A stretch of 64,000 nt of DNA, taken from Thiocapsa marina 5811. Its GTDB lineage: Bacteria > Pseudomonadota > Gammaproteobacteria > Chromatiales > Chromatiaceae. Shown here piece after piece: positions 1,495 through 60,046 of this stretch. Position 1 is the stretch's first letter. Each line of letters opens with the position of its first letter. The position numbers and the translations under genes are program-made. The stretch lies in assembly GCF_000223985.1 (NCBI RefSeq), contig NZ_AFWV01000001.1:124001-188000 (forward strand), given 5' to 3'. The notes beneath the pieces were generated by a model that was not told where the DNA came from, did no database searches, and saw nothing but the letters and a program-made list of their open reading frames with translations.

Positions 1495-2901
1495 ATGATG
1501 CTGAACTGGGACGACCCACTCGCCACGACCGGATCCGCCGCCCGAGATCACCGGGGGTCTTGCCTCGTCGATCCGACCGCCCCCCGCGAAGACTGGTCCA
1601 CCGACGAGCCGTCCCGCACGCCGACGGCAACCGCGCCTCGCCCGGCCCTCGGCAACGCGCATGTGCGTCCCGGCCAAGGCTTGGTCAGCAATACCGACTT
1701 GATGGCGACGGCCGGCGCAGCCCCTGTGGTCGACCCCAACCCATTCCCTGCGTCCGCAACGCAGCAGAGCGAGCTGCCGATCGGCGACACACTGCTGCCG
1801 GCCGAGCCGCGGTTGCACAGTCAGCAGACGGATGACGGCATCGTGGGCGGTGCCACTGGTCTCGAGTCGCTCGAGATGGGCGCGGGACGGGTGCGCGTCG
1901 ACGACAAGAAGATCATCAACTGCCACGCGGATCTCAACCAACTCGTCCCCTTTAAGTACGAGTGGGCCTGGCAAAAGTATCTCGACGCCTGCGCCAACCA
2001 CTGGATGCCGCAAGAGATCAACATGAACGCGGACATCGCGCTCTGGAAGGATCCCAACGGCCTGACCGACGACGAGCGCACCATCATCAAGCGCAATCTC
2101 GGCTTCTTCTCCACCGCCGATTCCTTGGTCGCCAACAATCTGGTCCTGGCCGTCTACCGCCACATCTCCAACCCCGAGTGCCGCCAGTATCTGCTGCGCC
2201 AATCCTTCGAGGAGGCGCTGCACACCCACGCCTATCAGTATGTCGTCGAAAGCCTGGGCCTGGATGAAGGCGAGATCTTCAACATGTACCGCGAGGTCCC
2301 CTCGGTCGCACGCAAGGCCGAGTGGGCCCTGCCCTACACCCAGCACCTGGCCGACCCGCACTTCAAGACCGGCACCCCCGAGAACGACCGCAAACTGCTG
2401 CGCGAGCTGGTGGCCTTCTATGTCATCTTCGAAGGCATCTTCTTCTACGTCGGATTCGTGCAGGTCCTGAGCATGGGGCGGCGCAACAAGATGACCGGCA
2501 CCGCCGAGCAGTTCCAGTACATCCTGCGCGACGAATCCATGCACATGAACTTCGGCATCGACGTGATCAACCAGATCAAGATCGAGAACCCGCATCTGTG
2601 GAGCCCGGAATTCAAGCAAGAGCTCATCACCATGATCCGCGATGCCGTGACCATGGAATCGCGCTACGCCCACGACACCATGCCCCGCGGCGTCCTCGGG
2701 CTCAACGCACCCATGTTCGAGGAATATCTGCAATTCATCGCCAACCGGCGTTGTGCGCAGATCGGTCTGCCGGAGCAGTATCCGGGCGCATCCAACCCCT
2801 TCCCCTGGATGTCCGAGGTGCTTGATCTGAAGAAGGAGAAGAACTTCTTCGAGACCCGGGTGACGGAATATCAGACGGGCGGCGCGTTGAACTGGGATTA
2901 A
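1495..2901 (+). CDS. nrdB: Ribonucleoside-diphosphate reductase, beta (R2) subunit
   Basis: This is the class I ribonucleotide reductase radical subunit, which makes deoxyribonucleotides together with NrdA (not in this window). The ferritin-like core shows EALHTHAYQ, which aligns with the E115/H118/Y122 region of E. coli NrdB and so keeps the radical tyrosine position. Later it has EGIFFYVGF and [10 protein letters not shown], carrying the second metal-ligand Glu and His. The C-terminal tail that docks on NrdA ends in GGALNWD. The start at 1495 follows a strong RBS (gaggag); an immediately following ATG at 1498 is equivalent. Between MLNWDDPLA and [10 protein letters not shown] lies about 100 residues of low-complexity sequence that typical NrdB proteins lack. 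The TAA stop is the first three bases of a TAAACCGCG repeat. Confidence 0.95.
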
Positions 2902-3093
2902 ACCGCGTTTTGTGGGTCACTTGCGGGATTCCATCGAGCCCGGCCCGCTGGAGCCCCAATGGGTCTTTGAGTCACGCGGTTTAAGGTTTTTTGGTCAATT
3001 ATCGACTTAAACCGCGTCTGCTCCGAGATTGGCTGTTTCCTTCGACGCTGACCCAGCGCGCATAGAGCGCATTTCACAGGGAGACGCGGTTTA
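2899..3093. repeat. TAAACCGCG palindromic element, doublet 1
   Basis: There are two units: 2899-2983 and 3008-3093. Each begins TAAACCGCG and ends CGCGGTTTA, and they are joined by a T-rich 24-base linker. The left end supplies the TAA stop of nrdB. The right end directly abuts the ATG of the NADAR gene at 3094. The interiors differ from those of other copies, so this is a diverged doublet. Confidence 0.85.
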
Positions 3094-3558
3094 ATGCGCG
3101 CCGAAACGAGCCTTTATATCTCGATGACGGACGAGACAAACCTGCTCTCCGCCGTCTCTCCACAACCATTCTCACTCGACGGCGCCGAATGGCCCACGGC
3201 CGAGCATTATGTCCTGGCCATGCAGTTCGAGGATCCCGCGCTCATGGCCGAGATCCGCTCGTCGCTCGACCCGCAGCAAGCCCGCAAACTCGCCAAGCGT
3301 CACAAGCGCAAGATCCGCAGCGACTGGGAGTCGGTGCGGCGTGTCTATGTGACCCGCGCCGTCTACACCCGCTGCCTCAGCCATCCCGAATCCGCGCAGG
3401 CACTCCTCGAAACCGGCGACAAACGCATCATCGAGAGCAGCCTCTATGACTACTACTGGGGCTGCGGCCGGGACGGACGTGGACTCAACACCTATGGAGA
3501 GGTGCTCATGGACGTCAGGGAGAAACTCCGCTCGGTGGCGGCCGTCTCTGCGGTATAG
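3094..3558 (+). CDS. NADAR-family (YbiA/DUF1768) protein
   Basis: The pattern of the NADAR family is clear: FSLDGAEWPTAEHYVLAMQF near the start, DWESVRRVYV in the middle, and WGCGRDGRGLNTYGEVLMDV at the end. Family members are N-glycosidases acting on ADP-ribose-linked or riboflavin-pathway intermediates, and some are toxin or defence associated. The length of 154 aa is normal. The ATG at 3094 is used because residues before 3124 align with the usual first strand; an internal ATG at 3124 is an alternative. The start codon directly follows a repeat element, so native upstream signals may have been replaced. No partner gene is adjacent, which fits a stand-alone housecleaning enzyme. Confidence 0.85.
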   Translation: MRAETSLYISMTDETNLLSAVSPQPFSLDGAEWPTAEHYVLAMQFEDPALMAEIRSSLDPQQARKLAKRHKRKIRSDWESVRRVYVTRAVYTRCLSHPESAQALLETGDKRIIESSLYDYYWGCGRDGRGLNTYGEVLMDVREKLRSVAAVSAV

Positions 3559-3713
3559 TGGTCCGCCCGGGCTCATGACCCGACGGGGCGAGCTTGACCG
3601 ACCGCATCCGCCACGAGCGCATTCAGCTCCCGAGCTGATTTAGCCGCTCGACACTCGACAACGAAACCACGCCGCGACGCATCCAGGAATGCCGATTCCA
3701 GACACGGGCCAAC

Positions 3714-4472
3714 ATGATCACACTTGAATCGATGGAGCTCGGTCTGAGACAGGGTGAGTTCTTCCTTGAGTATCTCCCCACGATTTCTCTCGTGGATGGA
3801 CGCTGCACAGGTGCAGAGGCATTGATCCGCTGGCGGCGATCCGATCAATTAACCATACCCCCTGGCGACTTTATCCCCTTCGCCGAGAACACCCGCGTTT
3901 CCGGAACACTCACGTACTGGGTCATCGAGACTGTCGCCGTCGAGTTGACGCCATGGCTCCGAGCCAACCCCGACGCCAAACTCGCAATCAACATACCGCC
4001 GGAAATCGTCGGGCGCGGCGGAATCCGTTACGCGGCTGATCGAAGCGGCCTCAGTGAATTCACGGATCAAATCATCCTGGAGATGACCGAGCGGGGAATA
4101 CCGGACATGATGGCGGTCACGGCGATCAACGACTATCTGTCGACCGGCGGTTGCGTCGCCCTCGACGATGTCACCCTGGTCGGCGGCGGCAACCTGGCCG
4201 TTCTCGCGCGCTGCCACATCAGCATCATCAAGCTCGACAGGTCCCTTGTCTCCCAAATCGTCGAGCATGAGCCCGCGCCCGCGTGGCTGGAAAGCGTCAC
4301 GGCATTGCTGCGCTCCTCCCAACTGAAGGTCGTCGCCGAAGGGGTCGAAACCCAGTTTCAGCTTGCCTCACTCCGCGCCGCGGGTATCCAGGAGGCACAG
4401 GGCTTCTATTTTTCCCCTCCCGTCCCGGCAGCGGAATTCGTGGCCTTTCATCATAAGACTCGCGGTTCTTGA
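3714..4472 (+). CDS. Stand-alone EAL-domain protein (c-di-GMP phosphodiesterase)
   Basis: The protein is a single EAL domain filling nearly all 252 residues. It keeps AEALIRW (EAL motif near residue 35), NIPPEI, LEMTERG, an Asp-Asp pair in LDDVTLVGGGN, IKLDRSLV, AEGVET and QGFYFSPP, so the metal and catalytic ligands appear present. Loop 6 (normally DDFGTGYSS) diverges after the two aspartates, which may affect activity or dimerisation. It probably hydrolyses cyclic di-GMP in the cytoplasm. There is no sensory domain, signal peptide or neighbour in the same operon. Other c-di-GMP proteins are encoded at 27.7, 33.8 and 60.1 kb. Confidence 0.9.
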   Translation: MITLESMELGLRQGEFFLEYLPTISLVDGRCTGAEALIRWRRSDQLTIPPGDFIPFAENTRVSGTLTYWVIETVAVELTPWLRANPDAKLAINIPPEIVGRGGIRYAADRSGLSEFTDQIILEMTERGIPDMMAVTAINDYLSTGGCVALDDVTLVGGGNLAVLARCHISIIKLDRSLVSQIVEHEPAPAWLESVTALLRSSQLKVVAEGVETQFQLASLRAAGIQEAQGFYFSPPVPAAEFVAFHHKTRGS

Positions 4473-4736
4473 TTTAGGGTGACTCACCCGACCACGATGC
4501 CCGTTTCGTAAAGAACGCGCTTGTGACAGCTCGCTGCACGCGCAAGGCCTCTTGATGCCGCCCGCTTGCGCATGAATCCTTTAGCCGAGTGCAGCAAGGC
4601 GGATGGGTCGAAGCCGCTCGTTGTCGTTGTCGCAATCGACCACCGATATGATCGCGATTACGACAACGAGAATAATCTCGGGCGGTCTCGAATTCCCTGC
4701 TCTGCACCGCAGCGCCTGGAGAAAGTGCTTGAGACC

Positions 4737-4820
4737 TAAACCGCGTCACACCGAGATCGAGGACACCTCCGAAGCCAAACGCAAGACGAAAATGTCGCAT
4801 GTCGCTCTAGGCGCGGTTTA
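4737..4820. repeat. TAAACCGCG palindromic element, single
   Basis: An 84-bp element with ends TAAACCGCG and CGCGGTTTA. The flanking bases are also inverted (GACC before, GGTC after). The right end, read on the minus strand, is the TAA stop of the glycosyltransferase gene at 4818. The 264 bases before this element, back to the EAL gene, hold nothing recognisable. Confidence 0.85.
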
Positions 4821-5963
4821 GGTCGCGCGCGGCCGCTTCCAAGTGTAGACGGCCGTCACCGCATAGTTCCAAACCGCACCGACCAGGATCCCGGCGAGCG
4901 CCGAGAGGAACCAGCCTGAGTGCCCGCCTTGGAAGAGATAGTCGGCGATGCCGACATTCGCCAGAGCGCCGACGCTGCAGGCGGCGACGAAGGACAGCCA
5001 GCCTCGGATCAGCTGACGGCCGCGCAGACGCATGTCGCGATACGTCAGGATGTTGTTCAGGAAGAAGTTGCTGGTCATGGCGACCAGTGTTGCCGTGGCC
5101 TGACTGATCAGGAAGGCGTCCGTCCCGAGCAGGGTCAGCATGGGCCAGAGCACGGCCATGTGGACGAAGACACCGAACCCGCCGATCGCCGAGAAGGCGA
5201 TGAAGCGCACCGGAATCACCGGGCCGATCAGCTTCTGAGTCAGCATCAGCAGGTATTCCCAGAGGACAGCGTTGTCGAGCTTGCTGCTGCCGGCCTCGCG
5301 CGCACGGAAGGTGAAGGGCAGCTCGCGAAAGCGCAGGGGATGCTCCGCCTCGGCGAAGATGTCGAGCAGGATCTTGAAGCCGACCCCGCTGAGACGCCGC
5401 ACGCACCCCTGGACGACCGAGGCACGCACCAGAAAAAACCCGCTCATCGGATCCTGCAGGTCCGCATGGATCAAGTACTGGCCGATCCGCGTCGCGAACC
5501 GGCTCATGGATTGGCGGCGGGCGTTCCAGTCACCCATCCCTCCGCCGGAGACGTAGCGGCTGCCGACCACGATGTCCAGGTTCTCGGCCTGGATGACCTC
5601 GAGCATCTTGGGCAAAAGGGTCTCGTCGTGCTGGAGGTCGCCGTCCATCACCGCCATGAAGGGTGCGGCGGTGGACATCATGCCTTCGATGCACGCCGAG
5701 GAGAGTCCGCGTCGCCCGATACGCTGAACCAGCCTGACACGCGAATCCTGTCGCGCAATCGCGCGGACCCGGTCAGAGGTCCCGTCGGGCGAGTCGTCGT
5801 CCACGAAGATCAACTCCCAGTCGATCCCCTGCAACACCGCCTCGACCCGCCGGACGACCTCGTCCACCATGTCCGACTCTTGGTAGGTCGGTACGATGAC
5901 GGCTAACTCGGGCGGAGGGCAGTTGTGTCGGGGCATCGGCTGATCGGAGATCCTAGTGGCCAT
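4818..5963 (-). CDS. Glycosyltransferase family 2 fused to GtrA-like membrane domain
   Basis: The N-terminal 240 residues form a dolichyl-phosphate-sugar synthase-like GT2 domain: AVIVPTYQESD, FVDDDSPDGT, MDGDLQHDE and DPMSGFFLVR. The C-terminal part has four predicted membrane helices of the GtrA type (RFIAFSAIGGFGVFVHM, then NFFLNNILTYRD). Such fusions transfer a sugar from a nucleotide donor to a polyprenyl phosphate and help move it across the inner membrane for envelope glycan modification. The start at 5963 (MATRISDQ) is chosen over the longer frame; 5936 (MPRHNC) is also possible, and neither has a strong RBS. The stop codon lies in a repeat element. The next gene is a divergent GT39/83 enzyme, a plausible user of the lipid-linked sugar. 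Confidence 0.88.
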   Translation of the reverse strand: MATRISDQPMPRHNCPPPELAVIVPTYQESDMVDEVVRRVEAVLQGIDWELIFVDDDSPDGTSDRVRAIARQDSRVRLVQRIGRRGLSSACIEGMMSTAAPFMAVMDGDLQHDETLLPKMLEVIQAENLDIVVGSRYVSGGGMGDWNARRQSMSRFATRIGQYLIHADLQDPMSGFFLVRASVVQGCVRRLSGVGFKILLDIFAEAEHPLRFRELPFTFRAREAGSSKLDNAVLWEYLLMLTQKLIGPVIPVRFIAFSAIGGFGVFVHMAVLWPMLTLLGTDAFLISQATATLVAMTSNFFLNNILTYRDMRLRGRQLIRGWLSFVAACSVGALANVGIADYLFQGGHSGWFLSALAGILVGAVWNYAVTAVYTWKRPRAT

Positions 5964-6092
5964 GAGCGGAGGGTCGATTCGTCGCGGGAAGGAACGTGCG
6001 GTGCGCGCCCTTTCAAGTAGACTGCCGCCCGCGGCCGCGGTCACCGGAGCGGTGCCGAGACCGCAGAGCCGAGCTCCGAAGTCGTTCTATTC

Positions 6093-6283
6093 TAAACCGC
6101 GTCAAGAGCGACATGGGTCATTTTCATTTGGTGTTGGGCTTAGTGATTTTTCCGACTTTTGCGGAGGCGCGGTTTAGAATTTAATTTTTTTAATGTCTTA
6201 AACCGCGCCGCCTCCAACGAAAGTCAAGTCTGCGGGCGCCGATCCCATCCAAAAACGTCGCATACCGCGCTGGGCGCGGTTTA
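6093..6283. repeat. TAAACCGCG palindromic element, doublet 2
   Basis: Unit A is 6093-6176 and unit B is 6199-6283, separated by an AT-rich linker with a run of seven T (6177-6198). Both units end in TAAACCGCG/CGCGGTTTA. Unit B closely matches the B unit at 34209. The doublet fills most of the 400-base gap between the two divergent glycosyltransferase genes; the rest of that gap shows nothing else recognisable. Confidence 0.88.
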
Positions 6284-6361
6284 ACGCGATCGTGTCACCG
6301 GCACCTCGACCGATCGCGACCGACCTCCGCCGAATCAGATCACCGACCGAGTCACTGGACC

Positions 6362-7912
6362 ATGGAAACGACCCGAGGCATCGATACACCCCGTCAGGCT
6401 TGGGGCCTACTGCTCGCCCTGATCGCGGCCATGACGGCTTGGCGGCTGAGCATCGCCGCAGTCCTGCCCGTCACGCAGGACGAGGCCTATTACTTCGACT
6501 GGGCCCGCAGCCTTGCCTGGGGCTATTTCGACCATCCCCCGGGTGTGGCACTGCTCGGGATCGGCACCTGGCTCGCCCCGGCGTCGGCGCTCGCAGCACG
6601 CGCGGGCACACTGATCGCCGGCGCATTGACGCTGCTCGTCCTTGCACGCTTCTTCCGCAACTGCGGCCTGACGGCGACGCGCGATCTGGCCTTGGCATTG
6701 GTCCTGGTCTTCGCGACCGTTCCCGGATTCGCCGGCGGCGTCATCACCACGCCCGACACCCTGTTGGGCCTGGCCTGGGCACTGGCCCTGCACGAGAGCG
6801 AGCGCGCGCTCGCCGGGGAGCGTCGGCGGTGGATCACCGCCGGAGCAGCGGTCGGTCTCGGCCTGCTCGGGAAATACACCATGGTCCTGATCGGGCCGGT
6901 CCTGCTGTTGGCCATCATTTTCAGCGACCCGCGCGCGCTGCGCACCCGCTGGCCCTACGTCGGCGGACTCGTCGCACTCTTGGTGTTCGCGCCGAACATC
7001 CTCTGGAATCAGCACAACGAGTGGCTGACCATGCGCTTTCAGTTCGGCCACGGCTTCTCGACCGAGGTCGGCGCGCTGCCGGTCGGCGCGCCTGGTGCCA
7101 TCGCGCACGTCGGCCCCCAATCGACCGGAGAGCGTCTGGGCAGCCTTTCGGGTTATCTCGGCACCCAGCTCGCGTTTTGGGGACTGATCGCTATTCCCCT
7201 GCTCCTTGCGCCTTTGATCAACCGGGCGCGACGCAACAAACCGAGCCAGGAGATGGCCGGGACACTCGTCCGCCACGCCACTCCTCTGCTGTGGGCTGCA
7301 ACCCTCTTCCCGTTGGGCTTCTTCGCCCTCGTCGCGACCGGCAGCGAAGTGGAACCGAATTGGCCCGCCGTCTATCTCATCTCCGCAGCGCCCTTGGCGG
7401 CGTTGCTGTTGCGCAATCTGCGTCCCTGGGTCATCGCGGCCGCACTGGGCAATCTGCTGCTTCTGAGTCTCTACGCGGTCCATGCCGCGACCGCGGCACT
7501 GCCGCTCGGTGACAGTCAGAATCGCGTCCTGCGCGAGACCCATGGGTTTCGGGAGTTGGCCGAAACCGTCGGCAGGCTCGAGGAGCCCGTCTATGCCGAC
7601 CGGTATCAGACGACGGCGATGCTGCGCTTCTACGCGCCGGGCTTGGACACCACGACCCAATGGCCCGGACTCACCCGACCCTCCGAATATCTCCGAGGAC
7701 AGATCGCGCCGCGACTGAATCCGGAATCCGTCGACTCCCCCTTCTGGCTCGTCTCCGGATTCGGCGCACCGCCGGCCATCGCGGATTTTCGCAGCGGCAC
7801 CCATCGACGGCTCTTCGATTGCGCCGGGCAGCCGCTGAGCGAAGCCGCTGAAGCGCCCTGCCTGCGTCCCTTACACACCTGGAATCTGTATCGGTACCAT
7901 CCTGAGGGCTGA
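6362..7912 (+). CDS. ArnT-like glycosyltransferase (GT39/GT83, PMT_2 superfamily)
   Basis: A 516-residue polytopic membrane protein. The first extracytoplasmic loop after helix 1 contains TQDEAYYFDWARSLAWGYFD and HPPG, the signature of the ArnT/PMT family in which the acidic residue after Q is catalytic. About eleven hydrophobic segments follow, then a soluble C-terminal periplasmic part from about residue 390. Such enzymes use a lipid-linked sugar on the periplasmic face to glycosylate lipid A, another glycan or a protein. The neighbouring GT2-GtrA fusion could make that donor, but the acceptor cannot be read from sequence. The start follows directly from the reading frame; the RBS is weak. 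Confidence 0.88.
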   Translation: METTRGIDTPRQAWGLLLALIAAMTAWRLSIAAVLPVTQDEAYYFDWARSLAWGYFDHPPGVALLGIGTWLAPASALAARAGTLIAGALTLLVLARFFRNCGLTATRDLALALVLVFATVPGFAGGVITTPDTLLGLAWALALHESERALAGERRRWITAGAAVGLGLLGKYTMVLIGPVLLLAIIFSDPRALRTRWPYVGGLVALLVFAPNILWNQHNEWLTMRFQFGHGFSTEVGALPVGAPGAIAHVGPQSTGERLGSLSGYLGTQLAFWGLIAIPLLLAPLINRARRNKPSQEMAGTLVRHATPLLWAATLFPLGFFALVATGSEVEPNWPAVYLISAAPLAALLLRNLRPWVIAAALGNLLLLSLYAVHAATAALPLGDSQNRVLRETHGFRELAETVGRLEEPVYADRYQTTAMLRFYAPGLDTTTQWPGLTRPSEYLRGQIAPRLNPESVDSPFWLVSGFGAPPAIADFRSGTHRRLFDCAGQPLSEAAEAPCLRPLHTWNLYRYHPEG

Positions 7913-8108
7913 GGCAAACCGATGGTGTAGGTGCACCTTGCACCTATTGAAGGGCAGCGAACAACGGCCTTGTCATGCTCGCGGAAGTCGCTCGCATGCC
8001 GACGGGCGTGGCGCGGAGCGCCAATGGATGCGTCACACCGCCAGAGCGGTGTCACGAGTATCTCCTGCAGAGCCCGGTCGCCAATCCTGCGAGCCGGCCT
8101 TGGGGATC
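7913..8108. other. Intergenic region with a short hairpin
   Basis: After the ArnT-like gene there is a perfect 7-bp inverted repeat (AGGTGCA, loop CCT, TGCACCT) at 7929-7945 without a T-run. The rest, up to the repeat doublet at 8109, shows no coding or regulatory element I can support. Confidence 0.4.
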
Positions 8109-8301
8109 TAAACCGCGTCCAGAGCGAGATGCTCACTTTCGCGTGAGTTCGACGTTGGGTGCTTCCACGGCTCTTAGCGGAGACGCGGTTTAGAATTTTA
8201 TATTTTTTAATACTTTAAACCGCGCCGGCTCCGACGATTATCAGAGCCGGAGCGGCCACGCCAATTCAACAAACTACGCATACCGCGCTGCGTGCGGTTT
8301 A
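8109..8301. repeat. TAAACCGCG palindromic element, doublet 3
   Basis: Unit A (8109-8192) and unit B (8216-8301) are joined by an AT-rich linker. Unit A is very similar to the A unit at 34101. Unit A contains an inner hairpin, CTCAC...GTGAG. The right end of B is slightly degenerate (TGCGGTTTA) and provides the minus-strand TAA stop of the HNH nuclease gene. Confidence 0.88.
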
Positions 8302-8584
8302 ATTCGACGCACCTGACCGCAGCATGTCACGGACCTCTTCGATCGAACGTGTGCATCCTCCAAGATGGATGACGGCATGGCAGTTCGGGCAGACAGGCCG
8401 CAGGTCAGTGATCGGGTTCACGGCATATCGAGCGACGATCTCGGATAAGGGTGTGAGATGGTGCACTTTGATGAAGCCCTTCGCAGCGGGGCCAAACGAC
8501 GTCAGGAAATCGAAGCAACAGATGACACACGAGCACCCGTAGTGTTCGATGCAGCGTTGGCGAGCGGCAGGATCACGTTCGTAA

Positions 8585-10004
8585 GTAACGATTCACTAAC
8601 AAGTAAGGCATTTTACCTCAGCCATCTTGTATGAAAAGTGCGTTAGCGACTTGAAAAAGAATCGACGTGCTGCGAGCATCGCTCCCGATGATCCGAACGG
8701 GAGTGGTTGCCGCATGAACGAATTTCCGGGCTACGGCGCAGCGCACGAGGAGACGATGCGGATGTTCTCGCGCACCTTGGACGAGGACCATCGCCGCCGC
8801 TACGCGGCGATCGAGGCGCTGAAGATCGGTTTCGGCGGGATCGCCTACGTGGCGCGCGTGCTGGGGATGAGTCGACGCACGCTCTACACCGGGATTCGCG
8901 AGTTGGAGCAGTTGCGCGAAGACGACCCGGACCATCCGCAGCGCCCGAGCGGCGATGCCAAGCGGGTGCGCCGCCCCGGCGGCGGTCGCCCGCCGATCAC
9001 CGAACGCAAGCCTCAGCTGGAGTCGACTCTCCACGAGGTGCTCGACGCCCACAGTGCCGGCAGTCCGACCGACGAGCGGGTGCGTTGGACCGATCTCAAA
9101 CCGCTGCAGTTGGCCCATCGCCTGCTCGAGCGCGGGTTCGAGATCAGTCGCAACACGGCCGCCGCGTTGCTGGATCGGGCCGGCTTTCGCCGCCGTGCGC
9201 TGCGCAAGGAGTTGATCACCGGCGTGGTCGACCCGACGGCACGCGACGAGCAGTTCCGCCACATCGCCGCGCTGCGCCGTCTGGCACGTCAGCGCGGCAT
9301 TCCGGTGTTCAGTATCGACACCAAGAAGAAGGAGGTGCTCGGCACCCTGTCGCGGCCCGGCCAGTGTTACACCACCGCACCGCAAACGGTCTTCGATCAC
9401 GACTTCCGCCACCTCGCCGACGGCGTGCTGGTGCCGCATGGCGTCTACGACGTGCTCGCCAACGTCGGCTTCATCACGCTCGGGACCTCGCGCGAGACCA
9501 GCGCCTTCGTCTGCGACGCCATCGCCTTGGCCTGGACGGTGCTGTTCAGGGCGATGTACCCCAACGCGACCGAACTGCTGTTGCTGTGCGACTGCGGCGG
9601 GGCCAATGCCGCGCGCTCGCTGCGCTTCAAGGAGGACTTGATCGAGCTGGCCACACGCTTGGGCGTGCGCCTGCGCATCGCCCACTATCCTCCTTATACC
9701 TCCAAGTGGAACCCCATCGAACATCGCCTGTTCAGCCAGGTCGAGCGCGCTTGGAGCGGGGTCATGCTCGACTGCCCGCAGACGGCTCTGCGCACCGTCG
9801 AGCAGACGCGCACACAAACGGGGTTGAGCGTGACCGCGCGGATCCTCGACGCGACCTACGAGATCGGCCGTACGTGTTCCGACACCTTCCGCGACGTCAA
9901 GGATCGGTTCATTCGCCACGATTGCGTGAACGGACAATGGAACTACCTCGTCGATCCAAATGGGTTCGCTTGTTAAAATGTTTAACTAGTTTTTGAACCG
10001 TTAC
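8585..10004 (+). mobile_element. Insertion sequence, ISAzo13 family, 1420 bp
   Basis: The element has imperfect terminal inverted repeats of about 33 bp: left GTAACGATTCACTAACAAG, right (reverse complement) GTAACGGTTCAAAAACTAG, both continuing to CATTTTA. It is flanked by the direct repeat TAA at 8582-8584 and 10005-10007. The rejoined HNH frame proves these borders. It encodes a single transposase. Confidence 0.93.
8714..9976 (+). CDS. ISAzo13-family transposase
   Basis: Full-length DDE transposase of about 420 residues. The N-terminal region has a helix-turn-helix (GGIAYVARVLGMSRRTLYTG). The catalytic core shows the three acidic positions in VFSIDTKKKE, LLCDCGGANAAR and SKWNPIEHRLFS. The ATG at 8714 (MNEFPGYG) is preferred; the frame is open further upstream from a TTG at 8627, but that lies close to the IS end. 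The ORF is intact and the IS ends are well preserved, so the element may still be active. It catalyses cut-and-paste or copy-type movement with a 3-bp target duplication. Insertion has inactivated the HNH gene on the opposite strand. Confidence 0.93.
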   Translation: MNEFPGYGAAHEETMRMFSRTLDEDHRRRYAAIEALKIGFGGIAYVARVLGMSRRTLYTGIRELEQLREDDPDHPQRPSGDAKRVRRPGGGRPPITERKPQLESTLHEVLDAHSAGSPTDERVRWTDLKPLQLAHRLLERGFEISRNTAAALLDRAGFRRRALRKELITGVVDPTARDEQFRHIAALRRLARQRGIPVFSIDTKKKEVLGTLSRPGQCYTTAPQTVFDHDFRHLADGVLVPHGVYDVLANVGFITLGTSRETSAFVCDAIALAWTVLFRAMYPNATELLLLCDCGGANAARSLRFKEDLIELATRLGVRLRIAHYPPYTSKWNPIEHRLFSQVERAWSGVMLDCPQTALRTVEQTRTQTGLSVTARILDATYEIGRTCSDTFRDVKDRFIRHDCVNGQWNYLVDPNGFAC

Positions 10005-23380: not shown

Positions 23381-23899
23381 TCACTCCAAATCCCAATCTC
23401 GCAGATCCCCGGGCTCGATGCCGCCCCATTCCGGCGGATACCAACCCTCGGCGACCGCACGACGGAAAGAACTATAGGGCCAATCCCCGGCCGCACGCGC
23501 GAGTCCATGTTTGACGGGGTTGTAATGGACATAGTCGATATGTCGACGCCAGTCCTCCTCGTTTCGAATCGCATGCTCCCAGAATCGCCGCTGCCACACC
23601 TCCTTTTCGCCCCGCCGATTCACGGGCGCATCGGCGCGGACAGAGACGTCGTGTTTGATATCCCTCCAGCGTCGGGAGAAATCGGCATCTCCCTCGGGGA
23701 GCTGCCAGACGGTGTGAAGATGGTCCGGCAGCACGACCATGGCTTGAATCTCGAACGGCCGACGCCGTTTGACATCCCGCATCGCCTCTCGCAAAAGCTC
23801 CACAGGCTCGGGTCGACCGAAAAGCGGCCGTCTGCCGTATGTCACGACGGTGAAAAAATAACAGCCGCCGGGGAGGTAACGCCGCCTGTAGTCGCTCAT
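23381..23899 (-). CDS. REP-associated tyrosine transposase (RAYT, Y1_Tnp family)
   Basis: A 172-residue HUH-type single-stranded DNA transposase. The HUH pair is in MVVLPDHLHTVWQLPEGD, and the catalytic tyrosine is in HIDYVHYNPVKHGLA. RYLPGGCYFFTVVTYGRRPLF and QRRFWEHAIRNEEDW are hallmarks of RAYTs. These enzymes cut and join at REP palindromes carrying a conserved GTRG tetranucleotide. Here REP doublets starting GTAGGG flank the gene on both sides (23262 and 23953), as is usual for RAYT-REP systems. The ORF is intact, so the enzyme may be active. It is monocistronic and starts at MSDYRRRYL. Confidence 0.95.
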   Translation of the reverse strand: MSDYRRRYLPGGCYFFTVVTYGRRPLFGRPEPVELLREAMRDVKRRRPFEIQAMVVLPDHLHTVWQLPEGDADFSRRWRDIKHDVSVRADAPVNRRGEKEVWQRRFWEHAIRNEEDWRRHIDYVHYNPVKHGLARAAGDWPYSSFRRAVAEGWYPPEWGGIEPGDLRDWDLE

Positions 23900-32968: not shown

Positions 32969-33579
32969 GCCATCAGTCGACCGTATTCGTCATCGACGAC
33001 GACGAGGACGTGCGCGAGTCGCTGCGCTGGCTCTTCCAATCGGTATCCATGCCGGTCGAGGTCTTCGCATCGGCGGCCGAGTTTCTCGCCCATCCAGACC
33101 GCGATGGCCCTGGATGCCTGGTGCTGGATGTGCGCATGCCGGAGATGGACGGGCTCGAGCTGCTCGAGGTTCTGCGCACGCACCGCATCGGCCTGCCCGC
33201 AATCATGATCAGCGGACACGCCGACGTGCCGATGGCGGTCAAGGCGATGCAAACCGGTGCCGTCGATTTCATCCAGAAACCGGTCAATCACCAGGATCTC
33301 CTGCAGCGCGTGCGCAGGGCGCTCGCCGCGGACGAACGTTTCCGCGAGGAGATCGGCGACCCGCGGATCATCGCCGAACGGCTCGAGCAGCTCACAGCCA
33401 AGGAGCGCGAGGTGCTCGAGTCGATCGTCAACGGCAGCACCAACAAGGCGATTGCCGGCGCGCTCAAACTCAGTGTGCGTACGGTCGAGACACATCGCGC
33501 CAACCTGATGCGCAAGCTCGGTGTCCACTCGACCGCGGGTCTGGTGCGCGTGACGCTCGCGTGCAGACTGCGCCCTTAA
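32965..33579 (+). CDS. FixJ/LuxR-type response regulator
   Basis: A 204-residue regulator. The receiver domain has FVIDDDEDVRESL (acid pocket), LVLDVRMPEMDG (phospho-acceptor Asp) and FIQKPVN (conserved Lys-Pro). The C-terminal LuxR/GerE HTH shows LTAKEREVLESIVNGSTNKAIA and SVRTVETHRANLMRKLGV. It is the partner of the overlapping histidine kinase. Phosphorylation should trigger dimerisation and promoter binding; targets are unknown, but the adjacent PilZ gene is a candidate. The TAA stop codon is the first three bases of a repeat element. Confidence 0.95.
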   Translation: MSHQSTVFVIDDDEDVRESLRWLFQSVSMPVEVFASAAEFLAHPDRDGPGCLVLDVRMPEMDGLELLEVLRTHRIGLPAIMISGHADVPMAVKAMQTGAVDFIQKPVNHQDLLQRVRRALAADERFREEIGDPRIIAERLEQLTAKEREVLESIVNGSTNKAIAGALKLSVRTVETHRANLMRKLGVHSTAGLVRVTLACRLRP

Positions 33580-33661
33580 ACCGCGCCCGGCGCGCTCTGT
33601 GATGTGATTGAATGGGATCGACCCCGGCAGACGTGACGACCGCTGCAGCCGACGCGGTTTA
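33577..33661. repeat. TAAACCGCG palindromic element, single
   Basis: An 85-bp unit from TAAACCGCG to CGCGGTTTA. The first three bases are the stop codon of the FixJ-type regulator. Confidence 0.88.
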
Positions 33662-34100: not shown

Positions 34101-34293
34101 TAAACCGCGTCCAGAGCGAGATGCAAAATTTTCGAGTGAGTTCGACGTTTGCTGCATCCACGGCCCTTAGCGGGGACGCGGTTTAGAATAATATATTTTT
34201 GAATATCTTAAACCGCGCCGACTCCAGCGGCCGCCAAGTCTTCCGGGGCCGATCCCATCCCAAAACATCCCATACCGCGCCGGGCGCGGTTTA
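34101..34293. repeat. TAAACCGCG palindromic element, doublet 4
   Basis: Unit A (34101-34185) and unit B (34209-34293) are joined by an AT-rich linker (ATATATTTTTGAATATCT). A is close to the copy at 8109 and B to that at 6199. The aguA ribosome binding site starts immediately after the right end. Confidence 0.9.
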
Positions 34294-35552: not shown

Positions 35553-35636
35553 CAAACCGCGTCACAGCAGGGGGTCTTGGTATCCGCTAGCGTACGAACA
35601 CCCGCCGACGCCCGGATGAACCAAGGACGCGGTTTG
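35553..35636. repeat. TAAACCGCG-family element, CAAACCGCG variant
   Basis: An 84-bp unit whose ends are CAAACCGCG and CGCGGTTTG. Both ends carry the same compensating T-to-C / A-to-G change, and the flanks ATC/GAT extend the inverted repeat. The matched change suggests that pairing of the ends is maintained. Confidence 0.8.
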
Positions 35637-43618: not shown

Positions 43619-43627
43619 CGCGGTTTA
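43619..43627. repeat. Solitary TAAACCGCG-family half end
   Basis: CGCGGTTTA is present without a recognisable left partner. Read on the minus strand it gives the TAA stop of the flavoprotein gene at 43625. It is probably a decayed element. Confidence 0.6.
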
Positions 43628-45409
43628 GGCCGGCCAGCGATCGAACGGCTGCTTCTCCAGGCGCATCTGCCCGTCGGCACCCTGGTGGATATTGATCCAG
43701 GCCTGCCAATTCGCGTCGTCCATCTCCGGGTAGTCGATCCGGAAATGACTGCAGCGGCTCTCCTTGCGCATCAGCGACGCCCGCAGCTTCATCTCCGCGC
43801 TGAGGATCATGTTCGCGGTCTCATGGGCCAGCCGAAGCTCATGCAGATCGCCGGCGCACAGCATCGGCAGATGGTGATCCCGCAGCTCTTCGATATAGGC
43901 GAGCGCCGCATTCAGCATGGACTCCTTTTTGATGTAGAGAACGAAGTTCGGAATCATGACGCCCTGCAGGGTCTGCGTGACCCAAGCCGGGCCATAACCC
44001 GCCTCGCGCCGCAGCGGCGCCAGCATCTCGTTCTCCACCTGGGCCAGCTTGTCCGCCGGCACGGACGGCATCGGCACACCCCGGCTGTAGCCTGCGGCGG
44101 CCTCGCCGGCGACGGCTCCCTGAACCGCGGATCCGGCCAGGGAGGAGCCGATCTGGGTGTAGATGGCCCCGGCCATGTAGGACCCCAGGGCATCGCCAGC
44201 CGCATAGAGCCCGGGGATGTTGGACTCGCAGCGGTCGTTGATCGGCACCAGACCCTCTGATTTATGGATCGCCATGCCGGCCGAGGAGCCGCCGACCGGC
44301 GCTCCGCGCATCCCGGGCGGACCCTTGTCCCCGCCGGGTCCACCCCCGGCTCCACCATCGGCGCCCGGGAGCGGCGGGCGATGAATCGGACCGCCTGTCA
44401 GCCAGCCACCCCCGGGCGGCGGCGGTCCGTGCGGGCGGTCGAAGCCTCGCGGCCGGGAGGGACCGCCGTCCAGCCGACCGAGCAGTCTATCCGGCGGACC
44501 CGGCGGCAAGGGTGCGCCCTTGGTATAGGCGACGTAGTTCAGCTCTACGCCGAGATCGTGGCGAACGTCCACGCCGGTCACGTCCGGTTTGCGCTCGAAC
44601 ATGCCGTGCCAGCCGTCGAAGCAGGCCGCCGGGTTCTGCGCCTGACCCGGGTGACCGTCGTTCCACTCCTTTCCGGTCACCTTGGCACCGATCCGGTAGG
44701 CCATGACGGTGCCATCATGTGTCAGGTCGCAGATCGGGAATCCGTTGGGCTTGAATCCGCCGGCACCGGTGCACAGGACCACGCTCTTGGCTGAAACCTG
44801 GATCAGGTGCCCGTCGTCCAAGGTGAAGCCCGCGGCGCCGGCGATGCGGCCCTCGTGCTCGATGAGATGGGTGACCATGACCCGCTCGATCAAGGGGATG
44901 CCGCGCGCCTCCATGGGACGCGAGAAGGCCTTGTTGCAGAGCGGCGAATCGAAGAATCCCCAGTCCCGAAGCTCCGCGACCCTGGCGGCGGAATGCTCCG
45001 CCATCTGGCGCGTGTAGACCGGGTTGTTGGTGCCGAGCGCCGAGCGCGACACCTCCGCCACGAAGGCATCCAGCGACATTCCCGCCTCGCGCGCGTCGAA
45101 CGCGAAGATACCCTTCGCGAACGGCGTTTGTCCCGACGCGCCGAGCCGCCCCTTGGACAGGACCACCACCCGCGCACCGGCGTCGTGCGCCTTGACCGCC
45201 GCGAACAGCCCGGCCATGCCGCCGCCGATCACGAGGACATCGGTCTGGTGGGTCTTTTGGTCCATGTTGTCGGGGTCGAAGGCGGCCCGGTTCTCGCCCC
45301 ATCCCGGGGCCATCCCCATGGCCGCGAGCGTCGCCGCCCCGGCCGTGCCACCGGCCAGCGTCAGGAAGCGGCGGCGTGACATGCCGTTGTTCTCATGCGG
45401 AGCCTTCAT
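43625..45409 (-). CDS. Tat-exported FAD-dependent reductase (fumarate-reductase-type flavoprotein)
   Basis: A 594-residue protein. The Tat signal is SRRRFLTLAGGTAG near residue 10. An FAD-binding Rossmann motif follows (DVLVIGGGMAGLFAAVKAHDAGARV), and the second half has SIPGLYAAGD-type sequence (SNIPGLYAAGDALGSYM). The C-terminal helical part (KESRCSHFRIDYPEMDD) matches succinate dehydrogenase/fumarate/APS reductase-like flavoproteins. Residues about 297-372 form a Pro/Gly-rich stretch (GPPPPGGGWLTGG, GGPGGDKGPPGMRG) not seen in most relatives. The gene overlaps the upstream cytochrome b gene by ATGA. It is likely a periplasmic reductase receiving electrons from the membrane partner. Its substrate is unknown. 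Confidence 0.85.
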   Translation of the reverse strand: MKAPHENNGMSRRRFLTLAGGTAGAATLAAMGMAPGWGENRAAFDPDNMDQKTHQTDVLVIGGGMAGLFAAVKAHDAGARVVVLSKGRLGASGQTPFAKGIFAFDAREAGMSLDAFVAEVSRSALGTNNPVYTRQMAEHSAARVAELRDWGFFDSPLCNKAFSRPMEARGIPLIERVMVTHLIEHEGRIAGAAGFTLDDGHLIQVSAKSVVLCTGAGGFKPNGFPICDLTHDGTVMAYRIGAKVTGKEWNDGHPGQAQNPAACFDGWHGMFERKPDVTGVDVRHDLGVELNYVAYTKGAPLPPGPPDRLLGRLDGGPSRPRGFDRPHGPPPPGGGWLTGGPIHRPPLPGADGGAGGGPGGDKGPPGMRGAPVGGSSAGMAIHKSEGLVPINDRCESNIPGLYAAGDALGSYMAGAIYTQIGSSLAGSAVQGAVAGEAAAGYSRGVPMPSVPADKLAQVENEMLAPLRREAGYGPAWVTQTLQGVMIPNFVLYIKKESMLNAALAYIEELRDHHLPMLCAGDLHELRLAHETANMILSAEMKLRASLMRKESRCSHFRIDYPEMDDANWQAWINIHQGADGQMRLEKQPFDRWPA

Positions 45410-46068
45410 GGGCGAGCACCCCGGGTTTGTGATAAGGGATTGGAATAGTCGTAGACGGCTTGCCGGATCACCACGAGCACCGCCGCACAGGCCAGCATCA
45501 CCACCAGCAGCGCGACGGCCGCATCGGTGTGTCGGCCCAGCTCGATGGCGTGCCAAGAGGCGACGACCACCAGCAGGACCGACAGCAAGGCGTGCAACAG
45601 CCTCCAGGTGCGGTAGTCCAACCCCAGCCGCGCGCGCAGCAGGGAGGTGGCGCCGATCACCAGCATCAGCACCCAGGAGACCATGCCCAGGACGACCCCG
45701 AGGCTGTCGAGGGTGGTCAGGATCTGCATCAAGGCATCTCCGGGAGAGACGCCGCCTTCGAAGGCACGGGGCAATACGATCAAAAAGGGATGAACAAGCA
45801 ACAAACTCACCACCGAATAGCCGATGATCTTGTGCAGATTCAAAAGCCTGCCGAACCTAATCCCTTCGGGTGCAAAGCGCGCGCCGCGCCCGAGCAAAAA
45901 CTGCCCGAACAGGAGAAAGAAGGCGCCCAGGGTCAGCATGGAGAGCGTTTCCTTCAAGAGCGAGCGCCCGGGATAGTCCCCCCGAGTCAGCAAAACCAGC
46001 GGCGGAAGCAAGAGCATCGATGCGGCGGCAATCAACCGGCATCTGTCGGTATCGGATCTCATGTTCAT
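45406..46068 (-). CDS. Ferric-reductase-like cytochrome b membrane protein
   Basis: A 220-residue protein with six predicted membrane helices and a ferric-reductase-like haem arrangement: FGRLLNLHKIIGYSVVSLLLVHPFLIV holds one pair of histidines, and YRTWRLLHALLSVLLVVVASWHAIEL another. It would carry electrons across the inner membrane. The start MNMRSD at 46068 overlaps the ferredoxin stop (ATGA), and its own stop overlaps the flavoprotein start. The three genes therefore form a coupled operon with a ready electron path: ferredoxin, cytochrome b, periplasmic flavoprotein. Confidence 0.85.
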   Translation of the reverse strand: MNMRSDTDRCRLIAAASMLLLPPLVLLTRGDYPGRSLLKETLSMLTLGAFFLLFGQFLLGRGARFAPEGIRFGRLLNLHKIIGYSVVSLLLVHPFLIVLPRAFEGGVSPGDALMQILTTLDSLGVVLGMVSWVLMLVIGATSLLRARLGLDYRTWRLLHALLSVLLVVVASWHAIELGRHTDAAVALLVVMLACAAVLVVIRQAVYDYSNPLSQTRGARP

Positions 46069-50496: not shown

Positions 50497-50553
50497 ATAG
50501 TCGTTTCGATGGGGCGCCTGGATTCGACCGGATGGCTCCTGAACCGCCCGTGA

Positions 50554-52441: not shown

Positions 52442-52483
52442 GAATCCTCTGAGGACGTCACATCGACTGCACGGGAGCACGCG

Positions 52484-55163: not shown

Positions 55164-55240
55164 TGGCGCGCCCGACAGGATTCGAACCTGTGACCCCAGC
55201 CTTCGGAGGGCTGTACTCTATCCATCTGAGCTACGGGCGC
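55164..55240 (-). tRNA. tRNA-Arg (anticodon CCG)
   Basis: The minus strand folds as a full cloverleaf: acceptor GCGCCCG/CGGGCGC, anticodon stem CAGCC/GGCTG with loop CTCCGAA (anticodon CCG, reading CGG), and T stem ACAGG/CCTGT with TTCGAAT loop. It has discriminator G and an encoded CCA (55164-55166). The rep gene lies upstream on the same strand. Confidence 0.97.
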
Positions 55241-57957: not shown

Positions 57958-58092
57958 AGTCGGATCGAGCGGCATCCGGTTGACATGTCGATCTCGAGTC
58001 CGCGAACGGCCGAGCCGCCGGCGCCGTTCGGCCCGATCTGATGTCTCGTCCGAGTCGCCTGTTTTGCCCGATACAGACGCCTGGAGCCCCCT

Positions 58093-58668
58093 ATGACGAA
58101 CCATCCCCGACCGGGAGGCCGGACCCGCCTGCTTGTGCTCGCCGATCGGATCGACGCCGTCGTCCGACAGATCGGCGAATGGGCGACCTGGCTTTCGCTT
58201 GGCATGGTGCTGGTCACCTTCGCCGTGGTGGTCTTGCGTTATGCGTTCGACATCGGCTCGATTGCGTTGCAGGAGTCGGTGACCTACATGCATGCCGTCC
58301 TCTTTATGCTCGGTATCGCCTATACGCTGGGGCGCAACGGCCATGTGCGGGTCGATATCCTCTACGAGCGGCTCTCGCGTCGCGGCCGTGCGCGGGTGGA
58401 TCTGATCGGCACCCTTCTGCTGCTGATCCCCGTGTGCATCCTGATCATCTGGCTCGGTTGGGCCTATGTCGCGGAATCCTGGCGTGTTCAGGAGGCCTCG
58501 CGCGAGACCGGCGGCCTGCCGGCGGTCTATCTGTTGAAAAGCCTGATCCTGATCATGCCGGTCCTGCTGTTGGCGCAGGGCCTGTCCAATGCCGTGCGCA
58601 ATTGGCTCTTCCTGGCCGGGATGGACGAGGCCCTGCCGTCCGTCGACGGGGAGATCGGTCGTGCATGA
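58093..58668 (+). CDS. dctQ: TRAP transporter small permease (DctQ-like)
   Basis: A 191-residue protein with four membrane helices (WATWLSLGMVLVTFAVVVLRY, TYMHAVLFMLGIAYTLG, LIGTLLLLIPVCILIIWLGW, LLKSLILIMPVLLLAQGLSN). RNGHVRVDILYERLS is the DctQ signature. It joins DctM to move organic acids such as C4-dicarboxylates, driven by a sodium or proton gradient. It overlaps the dctM start. The soluble binding protein DctP is not in this window. Confidence 0.92.
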   Translation: MTNHPRPGGRTRLLVLADRIDAVVRQIGEWATWLSLGMVLVTFAVVVLRYAFDIGSIALQESVTYMHAVLFMLGIAYTLGRNGHVRVDILYERLSRRGRARVDLIGTLLLLIPVCILIIWLGWAYVAESWRVQEASRETGGLPAVYLLKSLILIMPVLLLAQGLSNAVRNWLFLAGMDEALPSVDGEIGRA

Positions 58669-60046
58669 GATGATGCCTGTTCTGCTCTTCGTCGGCGTTG
58701 TCGCCACCCTGCTGGCCGGCTACCCGGTGGCTCTGTCCTTGGGGGGCACCGCGCTTGCCTTTGCCCTGGTCGGCGAGGCCTTCGGGCTGTTCGAGCCGGC
58801 GTTTCTCGAGGCGCTGCCCAACCGGCTCTACGGCGTCATGACCAACGAGACGCTGATCGCGGTTCCGCTCTTTGTCTTCATGGGGGTGATGCTCGAACGC
58901 TCGCGGGTGGCCGAGAGTCTGCTCGATACCATGGCGATGCTGTTCGGTCCTTTACGCGGCGGGCTCGGGATCTCCGTGACCCTGGTCGGCATGTTGCTGG
59001 CGGCGAGTACCGGAATCGTCGGAGCGACGGTGGTGACGATGGGGCTCTTGTCGTTGCCGATCATGATGCGACGCGGTTATTCGCCGAGCTTGTCGGCCGG
59101 GACCATCTGTGCGTCGGGAACCCTGGGTCAGATCATCCCGCCGTCGATCGTGCTGGTGCTGCTCGGGGACGTGCTCTCCTCCGCCTATCAACAGGCGCAA
59201 TTGGAGATGGGCATCTGGTCGCCGGAGACCGTCTCCGTCGGCGACCTGTTCGTCGGTGCATTGGTACCCGGATTGATGCTGGTCGGTTTCTACATCCTCT
59301 ACATCGTGGGTGTCGCGGTTTTTCGACCCGAGTCAGTCCCGGCCATGCCGCGCGAGGATCGACCGGTCGACGGCACCGCCCTTGCCTGGCGGGTCATCTC
59401 GGTACTGATCCCGCCCCTCTTTCTGGTTGTGGCGGTGTTGGGCTCGATCCTGGGCGGGTTTGCGACTCCCACGGAGGCGGCCTCGGTCGGCGCAGTCGGC
59501 GCGCTCATCCTGGCCGCGAGCCGGGGTAGGCTCACCCTGTCGACACTGCGTGAGGTCGTGCGTCAGACCACCATGGTGACCAGCATGGTGTTCTTGATCT
59601 TCATCGGTGCTGCGATCTTTTCATTGGTCTTCCGCGGATTCGGCGGCGATGACCTGGTCACCGAGTTCCTCACCGGCTTGCCCGGCGGGACGTTCGGCGC
59701 GGTGGCGCTGGTGATGCTGGTGATGTTCCTGCTGGGGTTCATCCTTGACTTCATCGAGATCACCTTCGTGGTGGTCCCGATCGTGGGTCCCGTCCTGCTT
59801 GCGATGGGGCTGGATCCGGTCTGGCTCGGGGTCATGATGGCGATCAATCTCCAGACCTCCTTCCTCACGCCGCCGTTCGGCTTCTCGCTGTTCTACCTGC
59901 GCGGGGTGGCTCCGCCCGAGATCACGACGGTCGACATCTACAAGGGCGTCGCACCCTTTATCTTGATCCAGTTGCTCGTCCTTGGACTGCTTGCGCTTTG
60001 GCCCGCCTTGACCACCTGGTTACCCGGGTTGGTCTATGCCTCCTAA
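58661..60046 (+). CDS. dctM: TRAP transporter large permease (DctM-like)
   Basis: A 461-residue, about 12-helix permease of the DctM family. Markers are GYPVALSLGGTALAFAL, NETLIAVPLFVFMGVMLERS, GTLGQIIPPSIVLVLLGD, GGFATPTEAASVGAVGA and FLTPPFGFSLFYLRGVAP. The GTG start at 58661 lies seven bases after a good RBS (ggggag) and overlaps the dctQ stop; ATG at 58670 is the alternative. The TAA stop is supplied by a repeat element. ETGG-containing DctQ and this DctM resemble the large TRAP group for mannitol/chloroaromatics or dicarboxylates; the substrate is not assigned. Confidence 0.93.
   Translation: MHEMMPVLLFVGVVATLLAGYPVALSLGGTALAFALVGEAFGLFEPAFLEALPNRLYGVMTNETLIAVPLFVFMGVMLERSRVAESLLDTMAMLFGPLRGGLGISVTLVGMLLAASTGIVGATVVTMGLLSLPIMMRRGYSPSLSAGTICASGTLGQIIPPSIVLVLLGDVLSSAYQQAQLEMGIWSPETVSVGDLFVGALVPGLMLVGFYILYIVGVAVFRPESVPAMPREDRPVDGTALAWRVISVLIPPLFLVVAVLGSILGGFATPTEAASVGAVGALILAASRGRLTLSTLREVVRQTTMVTSMVFLIFIGAAIFSLVFRGFGGDDLVTEFLTGLPGGTFGAVALVMLVMFLLGFILDFIEITFVVVPIVGPVLLAMGLDPVWLGVMMAINLQTSFLTPPFGFSLFYLRGVAPPEITTVDIYKGVAPFILIQLLVLGLLALWPALTTWLPGLVYAS

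What the first reader, a model, noticed from the sequence alone, without database searches (positions are those of the whole stretch)
2899..60046. The element terminus is the stop codon of six unrelated genes
The TAA at the element edge is exactly the stop codon of nrdB (2899), the GT2-GtrA gene (4818-4820, minus), the HNH gene (8299-8301, minus), the FixJ-type regulator (33577), the Tat flavoprotein (43625-43627, minus) and dctM (60044). In a seventh case the unit abuts a start codon (3094). A TA-targeted element beginning with A always rebuilds TAA when it lands in a TAA or TAG stop. Such insertions would be harmless and could be selected, perhaps also giving the gene a 3' hairpin. The coincidence is too frequent for chance placement in intergenic DNA.
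Basis: partly seen in the sequence, partly recalled or inferred. Interest (0 to 1): 0.75.

Follow-up and report, generated by a model that had tools for sequence, protein, structure and literature searches.

The report
Hairpin repeats that land on stop codons
Hundreds of copies of an ~85-base hairpin-ended repeat in purple sulphur bacteria sit exactly on the stop codon of a neighbouring gene about half the time, because the mobile repeat inserts at a four-base site (C/T-T-A-A/G) that two of the three stop codons contain, and because insertions within about ten bases behind a gene are over-represented.

Summary
Observation confirmed, with corrections. In samples of four related genomes, 112 of 244 repeat clusters have an edge that is a gene's stop codon (G000: 47 of 92), against 6-7% of non-coding TA sites. 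In the window four of the six cited cases are complete or shortened units at good genes; one is a lone unit end (43625) and one ends a 55-aa ORF without a Pfam match (8299).
Mechanism: empty sites show that the unit, often a ~193-bp inverted pair, duplicates TA (7 of 10 clean empty sites hold TA). The target is YTAR in 174 of 183 clusters, so TAA and TAG stops are ready-made targets and are rebuilt as TAA. This alone predicts 14%; 50% is seen. The excess is not special to the stop: sites 1-10 nt behind it are hit at least as often, sites further away about 2.7 times less.
Afterwards the ends persist as a stem: orthologous units drift inside (15%) but less at the ends (~4%), and old copies carry matching changes at both ends, reaching the stop codon and the flanking base.
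Best reading: a YTAR-targeting, MITE-like and BIME-like family landing harmlessly at gene ends, with a terminal stem under selection. No transposase partner was found. Ribosome stalling or mRNA stabilisation is only a hypothesis. Unexplained: unit-less orthologues often use TGA.

The parts
2899..2983 (.). unit (85 bp) whose left edge TAA is the nrdB stop; first of a pair
   Evidence: the same stop carries a unit in G002, G003, G004, G008 and G010, a decayed left end in G001 and G007; G005, G006 and G009 lack it and end at the same residue with TGA
3008..3093 (.). second unit of the pair; its right edge abuts ATG 3094
1393..2901 (+). nrdB, ribonucleotide reductase small chain
   Evidence: Pfam PF00268
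4737..4820 (.). unit whose right edge is the stop (minus strand) of the GT2-GtrA gene
   Evidence: orthologue in G004 has TAG at the same place without a unit
4818..6044 (-). GT2-GtrA gene
   Evidence: PF00535, PF04138
6093..6283 (.). A-spacer-B pair (6093-6176, 6199-6283), not at a stop
8109..8301 (.). A-spacer-B pair (8109-8192, 8216-8301); right edge ends the 55-aa ORF 8299-8466
33577..33661 (.). unit whose left edge is the stop of the response-regulator gene 32965-33579
   Evidence: G004 has a unit at the same stop
34101..34293 (.). A-spacer-B pair, not at a stop
35553..35636 (.). unit with CA..TG in place of TA..TA
43619..43627 (.). lone right end CGCGGTTTA = stop (minus) of the FAD flavoprotein gene 43625-45556
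60044..60099 (.). shortened unit (56 bp) whose left edge is the dctM stop
   Evidence: orthologue in G001 ends at the same residue with TGA, no unit
58589..60046 (+). dctM
   Evidence: PF06808

Best explanation
The units are a non-autonomous, MITE-like mobile element family of Thiocapsa and neighbouring Chromatiaceae. They occur alone or as an inverted A-(about 23 bp)-B pair, insert at YTAR and duplicate the TA (shown from empty sites). TAA and TAG stops are TAR, so stop codons are natural targets; the element starts with A, so the stop is rebuilt as TAA and the protein is unchanged (shown). Coding sequence is nearly free of units (1 unit-like match against 1,373 coding YTAR sites), and sites from the stop to 10 nt behind it are about 2.7 times more occupied than sites further downstream, probably because insertions there disturb little (inferred). 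Both edges of an inserted unit are YTAR again, so more units can be added (adjacent units sharing a TA are seen), and the repeated ends allow loss of one unit of a pair (different single units at the same stop in sister species fit this), leaving TAA. Once in place, the two ends are kept complementary, including the TA copies and the next base (shown as covariation), so a terminal stem, whose foot includes the stop codon at stop sites, appears to be under selection; its use is unproven.
For: Stop coincidence 47/92 in G000 and 12/29, 25/73, 28/50 in three relatives. YTAR 174/183 versus about 22% of background TA sites. Empty sites: TA in 7 of 10 loci under a strict flank rule (two of the seven are the same place in two genomes) and in 10 of 16 under a looser rule after dropping one hit that is itself a unit edge. 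Same C-terminus in 47 of 58 comparisons lacking a full unit. Occupancy step at 10 nt, sharper in convergent gaps (32:82, 8:10, 11:220). Pair, single and flipped states at one stop across species. Ends diverge 1-8% (mean of offsets 2-8 about 3.6%), interior 15.3%, in 196 of 228 orthologous comparisons. Old units of G000: pairing at -1/+1 30/35 (shuffled 15.9) and at offset 1 31/35 (17.4). The -1/+1 bases pair in 82% of 65 old and 62% of 69 young single units but across only 34 of 89 two-unit clusters, where they are not the foot of one stem. One orthologous locus shows TA..TA, TA..CA and TG..CA in different species.
Against: Unit-less orthologues of genes with a unit on the stop use TGA in 13 of 25 comparisons (8 of 14 genes by my count, leaving out one gene whose filled stop is itself TGA), whereas TAR stops stay TAR in 83% of unit-free orthologue pairs; insertion only into existing TAR stops does not predict this. 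Three of ten clean empty sites do not hold TA. No transposase or autonomous copy with these ends was found. TG..CA ends are 34/95 among old and 0/218 among young units, so part of the covariation could reflect an older subfamily with different ends. Paired stems also occur in divergent gaps, so pairing is not tied to gene 3' ends. End conservation is partly favoured by how units were detected.
Confidence: 0.7

Rival explanations
1. The position is selected: the hairpin at or just behind the stop acts on the mRNA (3' exonuclease barrier, or stalling of the terminating ribosome as reported for E. coli REPs within 15 nt of a stop), so units are kept where they work.
For: Enrichment confined to 0-10 nt; stem conserved and covarying up to the stop codon; in mRNA sense G-U exceeds A-C 49:29 among unpaired cells of tandem-context units; published REP precedent, including nrdAB (passages of PMC12306157).
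Against: Old clusters are not significantly more stop-proximal than young ones (51/79 vs 73/133, p=0.2). Stems are kept in divergent gaps too (7 of 9 old units fully paired). G-U bias is absent for units at the stop itself (11:10). No expression data.
Confidence: 0.25
2. The units are intrinsic transcription terminators.
For: Hairpins behind genes; in the scan of 2500-8700 two of the six terminator-like hits lie in the unit 8216-8301.
Against: No T-tract: T5 within 14 nt in 9 of 147, A5 in 27 of 147; pair orientation 22:21; six terminator-like sites against 4.2 expected from shuffles.
Confidence: 0.05
3. The stops are created by the insertion: the element truncates genes at in-frame TA codons near their ends.
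For: The element always supplies TAA in the frame of the target TA.
Against: Proteins of orthologues without a full unit end at the same residue in 47 of 58 comparisons; 7 differ by 2-10 residues and 4 by more than 15.
Confidence: 0.04
4. The unit can also enter TGA stops and convert them to TAA, because its own ends carry the TA, or because mismatches of the duplicated bases are repaired towards pairing.
For: TGA in 13 of 25 unit-less orthologue comparisons against 17% expected; clean empty site TG-AGAGGCC in both G001 and G010 where G000 has TA..TA-AGAGGCC.
Against: Seven of ten clean empty sites have TA; TA to TG is a common transition; downstream DNA of most TGA cases does not align with the filled flank at the insertion point.
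Confidence: 0.15

Closest known systems
IS711 and the YTAR-targeting IS5-type insertion sequences
   Same: Target consensus YTAR with duplication of the central TA (IS711: passages of PMC2266754); IS5 motif YTAR (passages of PMC10359306).
   Different: The units carry no transposase; the PF13340 domain that I associate from memory with this group has no match in 7 of the 8 unit-bearing genus genomes. A preference of IS711 for palindromic repeats is mentioned in the passages read; stop codons are not.
Bacterial MITEs with TA ends (Correia/NEMIS, RUP, ERIC, QMITE2)
   Same: Around 100 bp or more, inverted ends, TA at the termini, many copies, stem-loop transcripts (passages of PMC2229807 and PMC5896051). 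One QMITE2 copy is described with a stop codon immediately before it.
   Different: About half of the clusters sit exactly on a stop codon; interiors drift while ends covary; inverted pairs with a spacer of mostly 23 bp.
REP/BIME elements of enterobacteria
   Same: High-copy hairpins, inverted pairs, a share of them just behind stops; nrdAB carries one in E. coli (passages of PMC12306157).
   Different: Units are 84-86 bp, duplicate TA at YTAR, and are not tied to the presence of Y1 transposases, which occur in all 11 genus genomes searched including three without units.

Membership tests
MITE | terminal inverted repeats | tested here: met
MITE | target-site duplication | tested here: met
   single TA at 7 of 10 clean empty sites where the filled site has TA at both edges or a changed copy of it
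MITE | no transposase of its own | tested here: met
   units of 84-86 bp, pairs of about 193 bp
MITE | autonomous relative sharing the ends | tested here: inconclusive
   2 solo-end pairs 150-4000 bp apart in the held sequence, one enclosing genes that look ordinary, one without a called gene; two IS630-type loci lack such ends; whole genomes were not scanned for this
IS5/IS711 target type | YTAR target, TA duplicated | tested here: met
   174/183 clusters with TA at both edges
IS5/IS711 target type | related transposase in the unit-bearing genomes | tested here: not met
   PF13340: match in 1 of 8 unit-bearing genus genomes; only this one Pfam family of the group was searched
REP/BIME | inverted pairs at regular spacing | tested here: met
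   73 of 74 two-unit clusters with both units typed are A+ B- or B+ A-; spacer 22-24 bp in 74 of 100 adjacent pairs
REP/BIME | 20-40 bp palindrome with a GTAG or CGTC tag (title and abstract of PMC3733652) | tested here: not met
   length mostly 84-86 bp, ends TAAACCGCG
REP/BIME | mobilised by RAYT | tested here: inconclusive
   PF01797 matches in unit-bearing and unit-less genomes alike
structured RNA family | Rfam match or conserved internal fold | tested here: not met
   the only Rfam gathering-threshold hit in the window is a tRNA; alifold of 106 A-type units keeps 3 pairs, of 133 B-type units the terminal stem and a few weakly supported inner pairs
intrinsic terminator | hairpin followed by T-tract | tested here: not met

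The most novel reading that the evidence does not exclude
A mobile element domesticated as a stop-codon-anchored hairpin: its arm begins with the stop codon itself, is kept base-paired by compensatory changes that pass through TAA and TGA, and the terminating ribosome must open it, so that the element tunes termination, ribosome release or mRNA decay for many unrelated genes; the dock persists while the units in it are lost, flipped and replaced.
Probability: 0.2. Interest if true: 0.8.

Novelty: new variant of a known kind. Interest (0 to 1): 0.58.

Why it matters
It gives a simple, quantitative reason why a transposable element should sit on stop codons: a target motif that contains two of the three stops, regeneration of the stop by the element's first base, and edges that remain targets. 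It makes testable whether high-copy hairpins behind genes are there because they are harmless or because they act on termination and mRNA decay, an old open question for REP elements.

Tried and rejected
Intrinsic terminator: not supported. Gene truncation by insertion: not supported. IS630-type partner (PF13358): G003 has 342 exact-ended units and no match; two full-length loci of G000 have no matching ends. RAYT partner (PF01797): present with and without units; in the window its copy lies more than 9 kb from any listed unit. IS427/IS711-type partner (PF13340): no match in 7 of 8 unit-bearing genus genomes. Conserved internal RNA fold: none found. Plasmids, phages and viral contigs: no match to one unit pair or to the unit pattern. 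RNA-sense G-U excess: 49:29 overall but 11:10 at stops, so not used as proof. The comparison of stop codons with unit-less orthologues left an unexplained TGA excess. An early idea that units are gene-cassette (attC) sites was dropped without a test.

Papers: passages only of PMC10892978 (three places found, none on such repeats), PMC5944118 (CRISPR only in the places shown), PMC12306157, PMC2266754, PMC10359306, PMC2229807 and PMC5896051; all others seen only as search listings with the start of the abstract. I saw no description of this repeat in the listings; most subscription journals are not held, and listings were capped.
Full report
What was checked. The window is part of a 5.59-Mb genome (G000:C62:124001-188000). 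Named organisms with the same units include Thiocapsa, Thiobaca trueperi, Thiocystis minor and Lamprocystis purpurea (a capped listing). The repeat reads TAAACCGCG ... CGCGGTTTA, usually 84-86 bp. The genome has 343 exact-ended copies against 1 for the reversed control pattern. Seven of the ten other genus genomes hold 121-588 copies under a similar pattern and three hold none; of the 45 further genomes searched one has 80 and one has 1.

The six cases. Four are solid: nrdB, the GT2-GtrA gene, the response regulator and dctM. At the flavoprotein gene only one unit end remains. The so-called HNH gene is a 55-aa ORF without a Pfam match. The ATG-abutting unit is real, and the same junction is seen in G003 and G008.

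Frequency. I took 1.24 Mb of G000 and called genes with a simple periodic Markov caller. There are 127 units with at most one mismatch per end; one inside a gene was dropped, leaving 126 in 92 clusters; 47 clusters have an outer edge that is a called stop (39 TAA, 7 TGA, 1 TAG). Of 4,892 free TA sites in non-coding DNA and stops, 301 (6.2%) lie in stops. G004, G001 and G010 give 12/29, 25/73 and 28/50. Loci of other named organisms, fetched because they hold a unit, agree: Thiobaca 6/18, Thiocystis 6/8, Lamprocystis 1/3, T. roseopersicina 9/20, KS1 8/14, Thiocapsa MAGs 18/37, other Chromatiaceae MAGs 5/7.

Target. Joined flanks find empty orthologous sites: a single TA where the unit or pair is flanked by TA on both sides, for example C62:32764 in L165 and G004, C60:156734 in G001 (a TAG stop), G001_B 68583 in G000, G010_A 67960 in G001. 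Under a strict flank rule 7 of 10 loci hold TA (two of the seven are the same place in two genomes), the others TG, CG and AA; under a looser rule 10 of 16 hold TA, after dropping one hit that is itself a unit edge, the others TG, AA, CG and TT. The base before the left TA and after the right TA form YTAR in 174 of 183 clusters with TA at both edges, against about 22% of background TA sites. YTAR contains TAA and TAG. Under a YTAR null 344 of 2,468 sites (13.9%) are stops; 87 of 174 clusters are there.

Distance. Unit edges per free YTAR site downstream of genes: 90 per 327 at the stop, 14 per 32 at 1-10 nt, 85 per 803 at 11-299 nt. The stop does not differ from the next ten nucleotides (p=0.19); both together exceed the rest 2.7-fold (p=3e-10; related genomes pooled, so optimistic). 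In convergent gaps, where no promoter is expected, the figures are 32:82, 8:10 and 11:220. Inside genes there are 1,373 YTAR sites and one unit-like match. So the striking coincidence is the product of a target motif, scarcity of such motifs in a 65% G+C genome, and a zone of about ten nucleotides behind genes.

Effect on the gene. For 115 genes whose stop is a unit edge I compared 137 orthologous ends in other species (pairs with a unit on both sides can count twice): 79 have a unit there too (78 at the same residue), 11 have half a unit (all same residue), 47 have none; of these 36 end at the same residue, 7 within ten residues and 4 further off. nrdB ends ...ALNWD or ...ALSWD in all eleven genus genomes, with TGA in the three unit-less ones.

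Dynamics. Units fall into related types A and B; 73 of 74 typed two-unit clusters are A(+)-B(-) or the reverse, with an A/T-rich spacer of 22-24 bp in 74 of 100 adjacent pairs. At the same stop, sister species hold B+A-, A- alone or B+ alone (gene C60|69), or the pair in opposite orientation (C62|57). Of 966 reciprocal best-hit pairs, 130 have a unit within 12 nt of the stop in at least one species, 53 in both; in 18 of the 53 the first units are no more alike than the chance maximum of 0.61; three of these are the nrdB units, which look homologous by eye. Four adjacent pairs share one TA. Loss of one unit by recombination between repeated ends is the simplest reading (inferred).

The ends. 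In 196 of 228 orthologous comparisons with interior identity of at least 0.55 (32 dropped; both directions of a pair may count), the interior differs at 15.3% of positions, the BLAST-aligned flanks by about 10.6%, the first T of the TA copy by 1.8%, its second base by 8.2%, the element's end bases by 1.3-7.2%, and the next outer base by 6.2%. Queries were chosen for good ends, which lowers these figures. Of 344 units, 218 are close to a reference type ('young'), 95 are not ('old'), 31 lie between. TG..CA replaces TA..TA in 34 of 95 old and 0 of 218 young units; one-sided TG..TA or TA..CA are 6 and 4. In old units of G000 alone the outer flanking base pairs in 30/35 (shuffled mean 15.9), offset 1 in 31/35 (17.4), offset 9 in 31/35 (22.4); G001 alone agrees. 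A control: the bases flanking a whole two-unit cluster pair in only 34 of 89, those flanking single units in 62% (young, n=69) and 82% (old, n=65). One locus (C60:55790 and orthologues) shows TA..TA, TA..CA and TG..CA in different species, and another (C60:55686) shows C-G replaced by T-A on both sides of offset 5. Since the TA copies and flanking bases come from the target, not the element, such pairing points to selection for a stem after insertion, unless TG..CA marks an older subfamily with its own ends. The stem is also kept in divergent gaps, so its use need not be at mRNA 3' ends. I found no conserved inner fold, and eight window units fold with z of -1.2 to -5.1 against shuffles.

What it does. 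Passages of PMC12306157 report that E. coli REPs within 15 nt of a stop can stall terminating ribosomes, and name the nrdAB transcript among them. The 0-10 nt zone and nrdB fit, but age does not sharpen the zone significantly (73/133 young, 51/79 old clusters), and the G-U excess in mRNA sense is weak (49:29) and absent at stops (11:10). I therefore favour harmless landing over selected placement, and selection on the stem for an unknown reason.

Open problem. In 25 comparisons of a filled stop with a unit-less orthologue, 13 orthologues have TGA (in one of them the filled stop is TGA as well), although TAR stops stay TAR in 83% of unit-free pairs. In one clean case (gene end DGFDDF) both G001 and G010 have TG-A where G000 has TA..TA-A. 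Prior mutation, turnover of the downstream DNA, or insertion into TGA with conversion to TAA could explain it.

Noticed in passing
window 23384-23899 (-): A short protein with a weak match to the Y1 (IS200-like) transposase family (E 8.5e-06); no unit lies near it.
   Followed up: partly
window 3094-3558 (+): A NADAR-domain gene directly behind nrdB, separated only by a pair of units.
   Followed up: no
window 55167-55240 (-): A tRNA gene, the only Rfam hit of the window at the gathering threshold.
   Followed up: no
G001:C1:2028118-2028240 (L191): A second, partial match to the nrdB C-terminus (41 aa, 80% identity) about 9 kb from the full gene.
   Followed up: no
G008: A genus member listed at 10.4 Mb, well above the others, with 121 units; nrdB gives two matches in separate frames.
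   Followed up: no
G000 C62 about 8145-8175 (L016): Short tandem copies of TGAACC[A/G]CGC at a unit edge behind a gene end, as if unit feet had been duplicated.
   Followed up: no
G000 C60:52954 and C62:292106 versus G001: The same unit lies 4 or 3 nt behind the stop in G001 but exactly on it in G000: small deletions may bring the unit's own stop onto the gene end.
   Followed up: partly
stop-proximal units, four genomes: Unit edges 3-10 nt behind the stop are at 3 (1), 4 (4), 5 (4), 6 (7), 8 (6) and 10 (9) nt, none at 7 or 9; small, partly related numbers.
   Followed up: no
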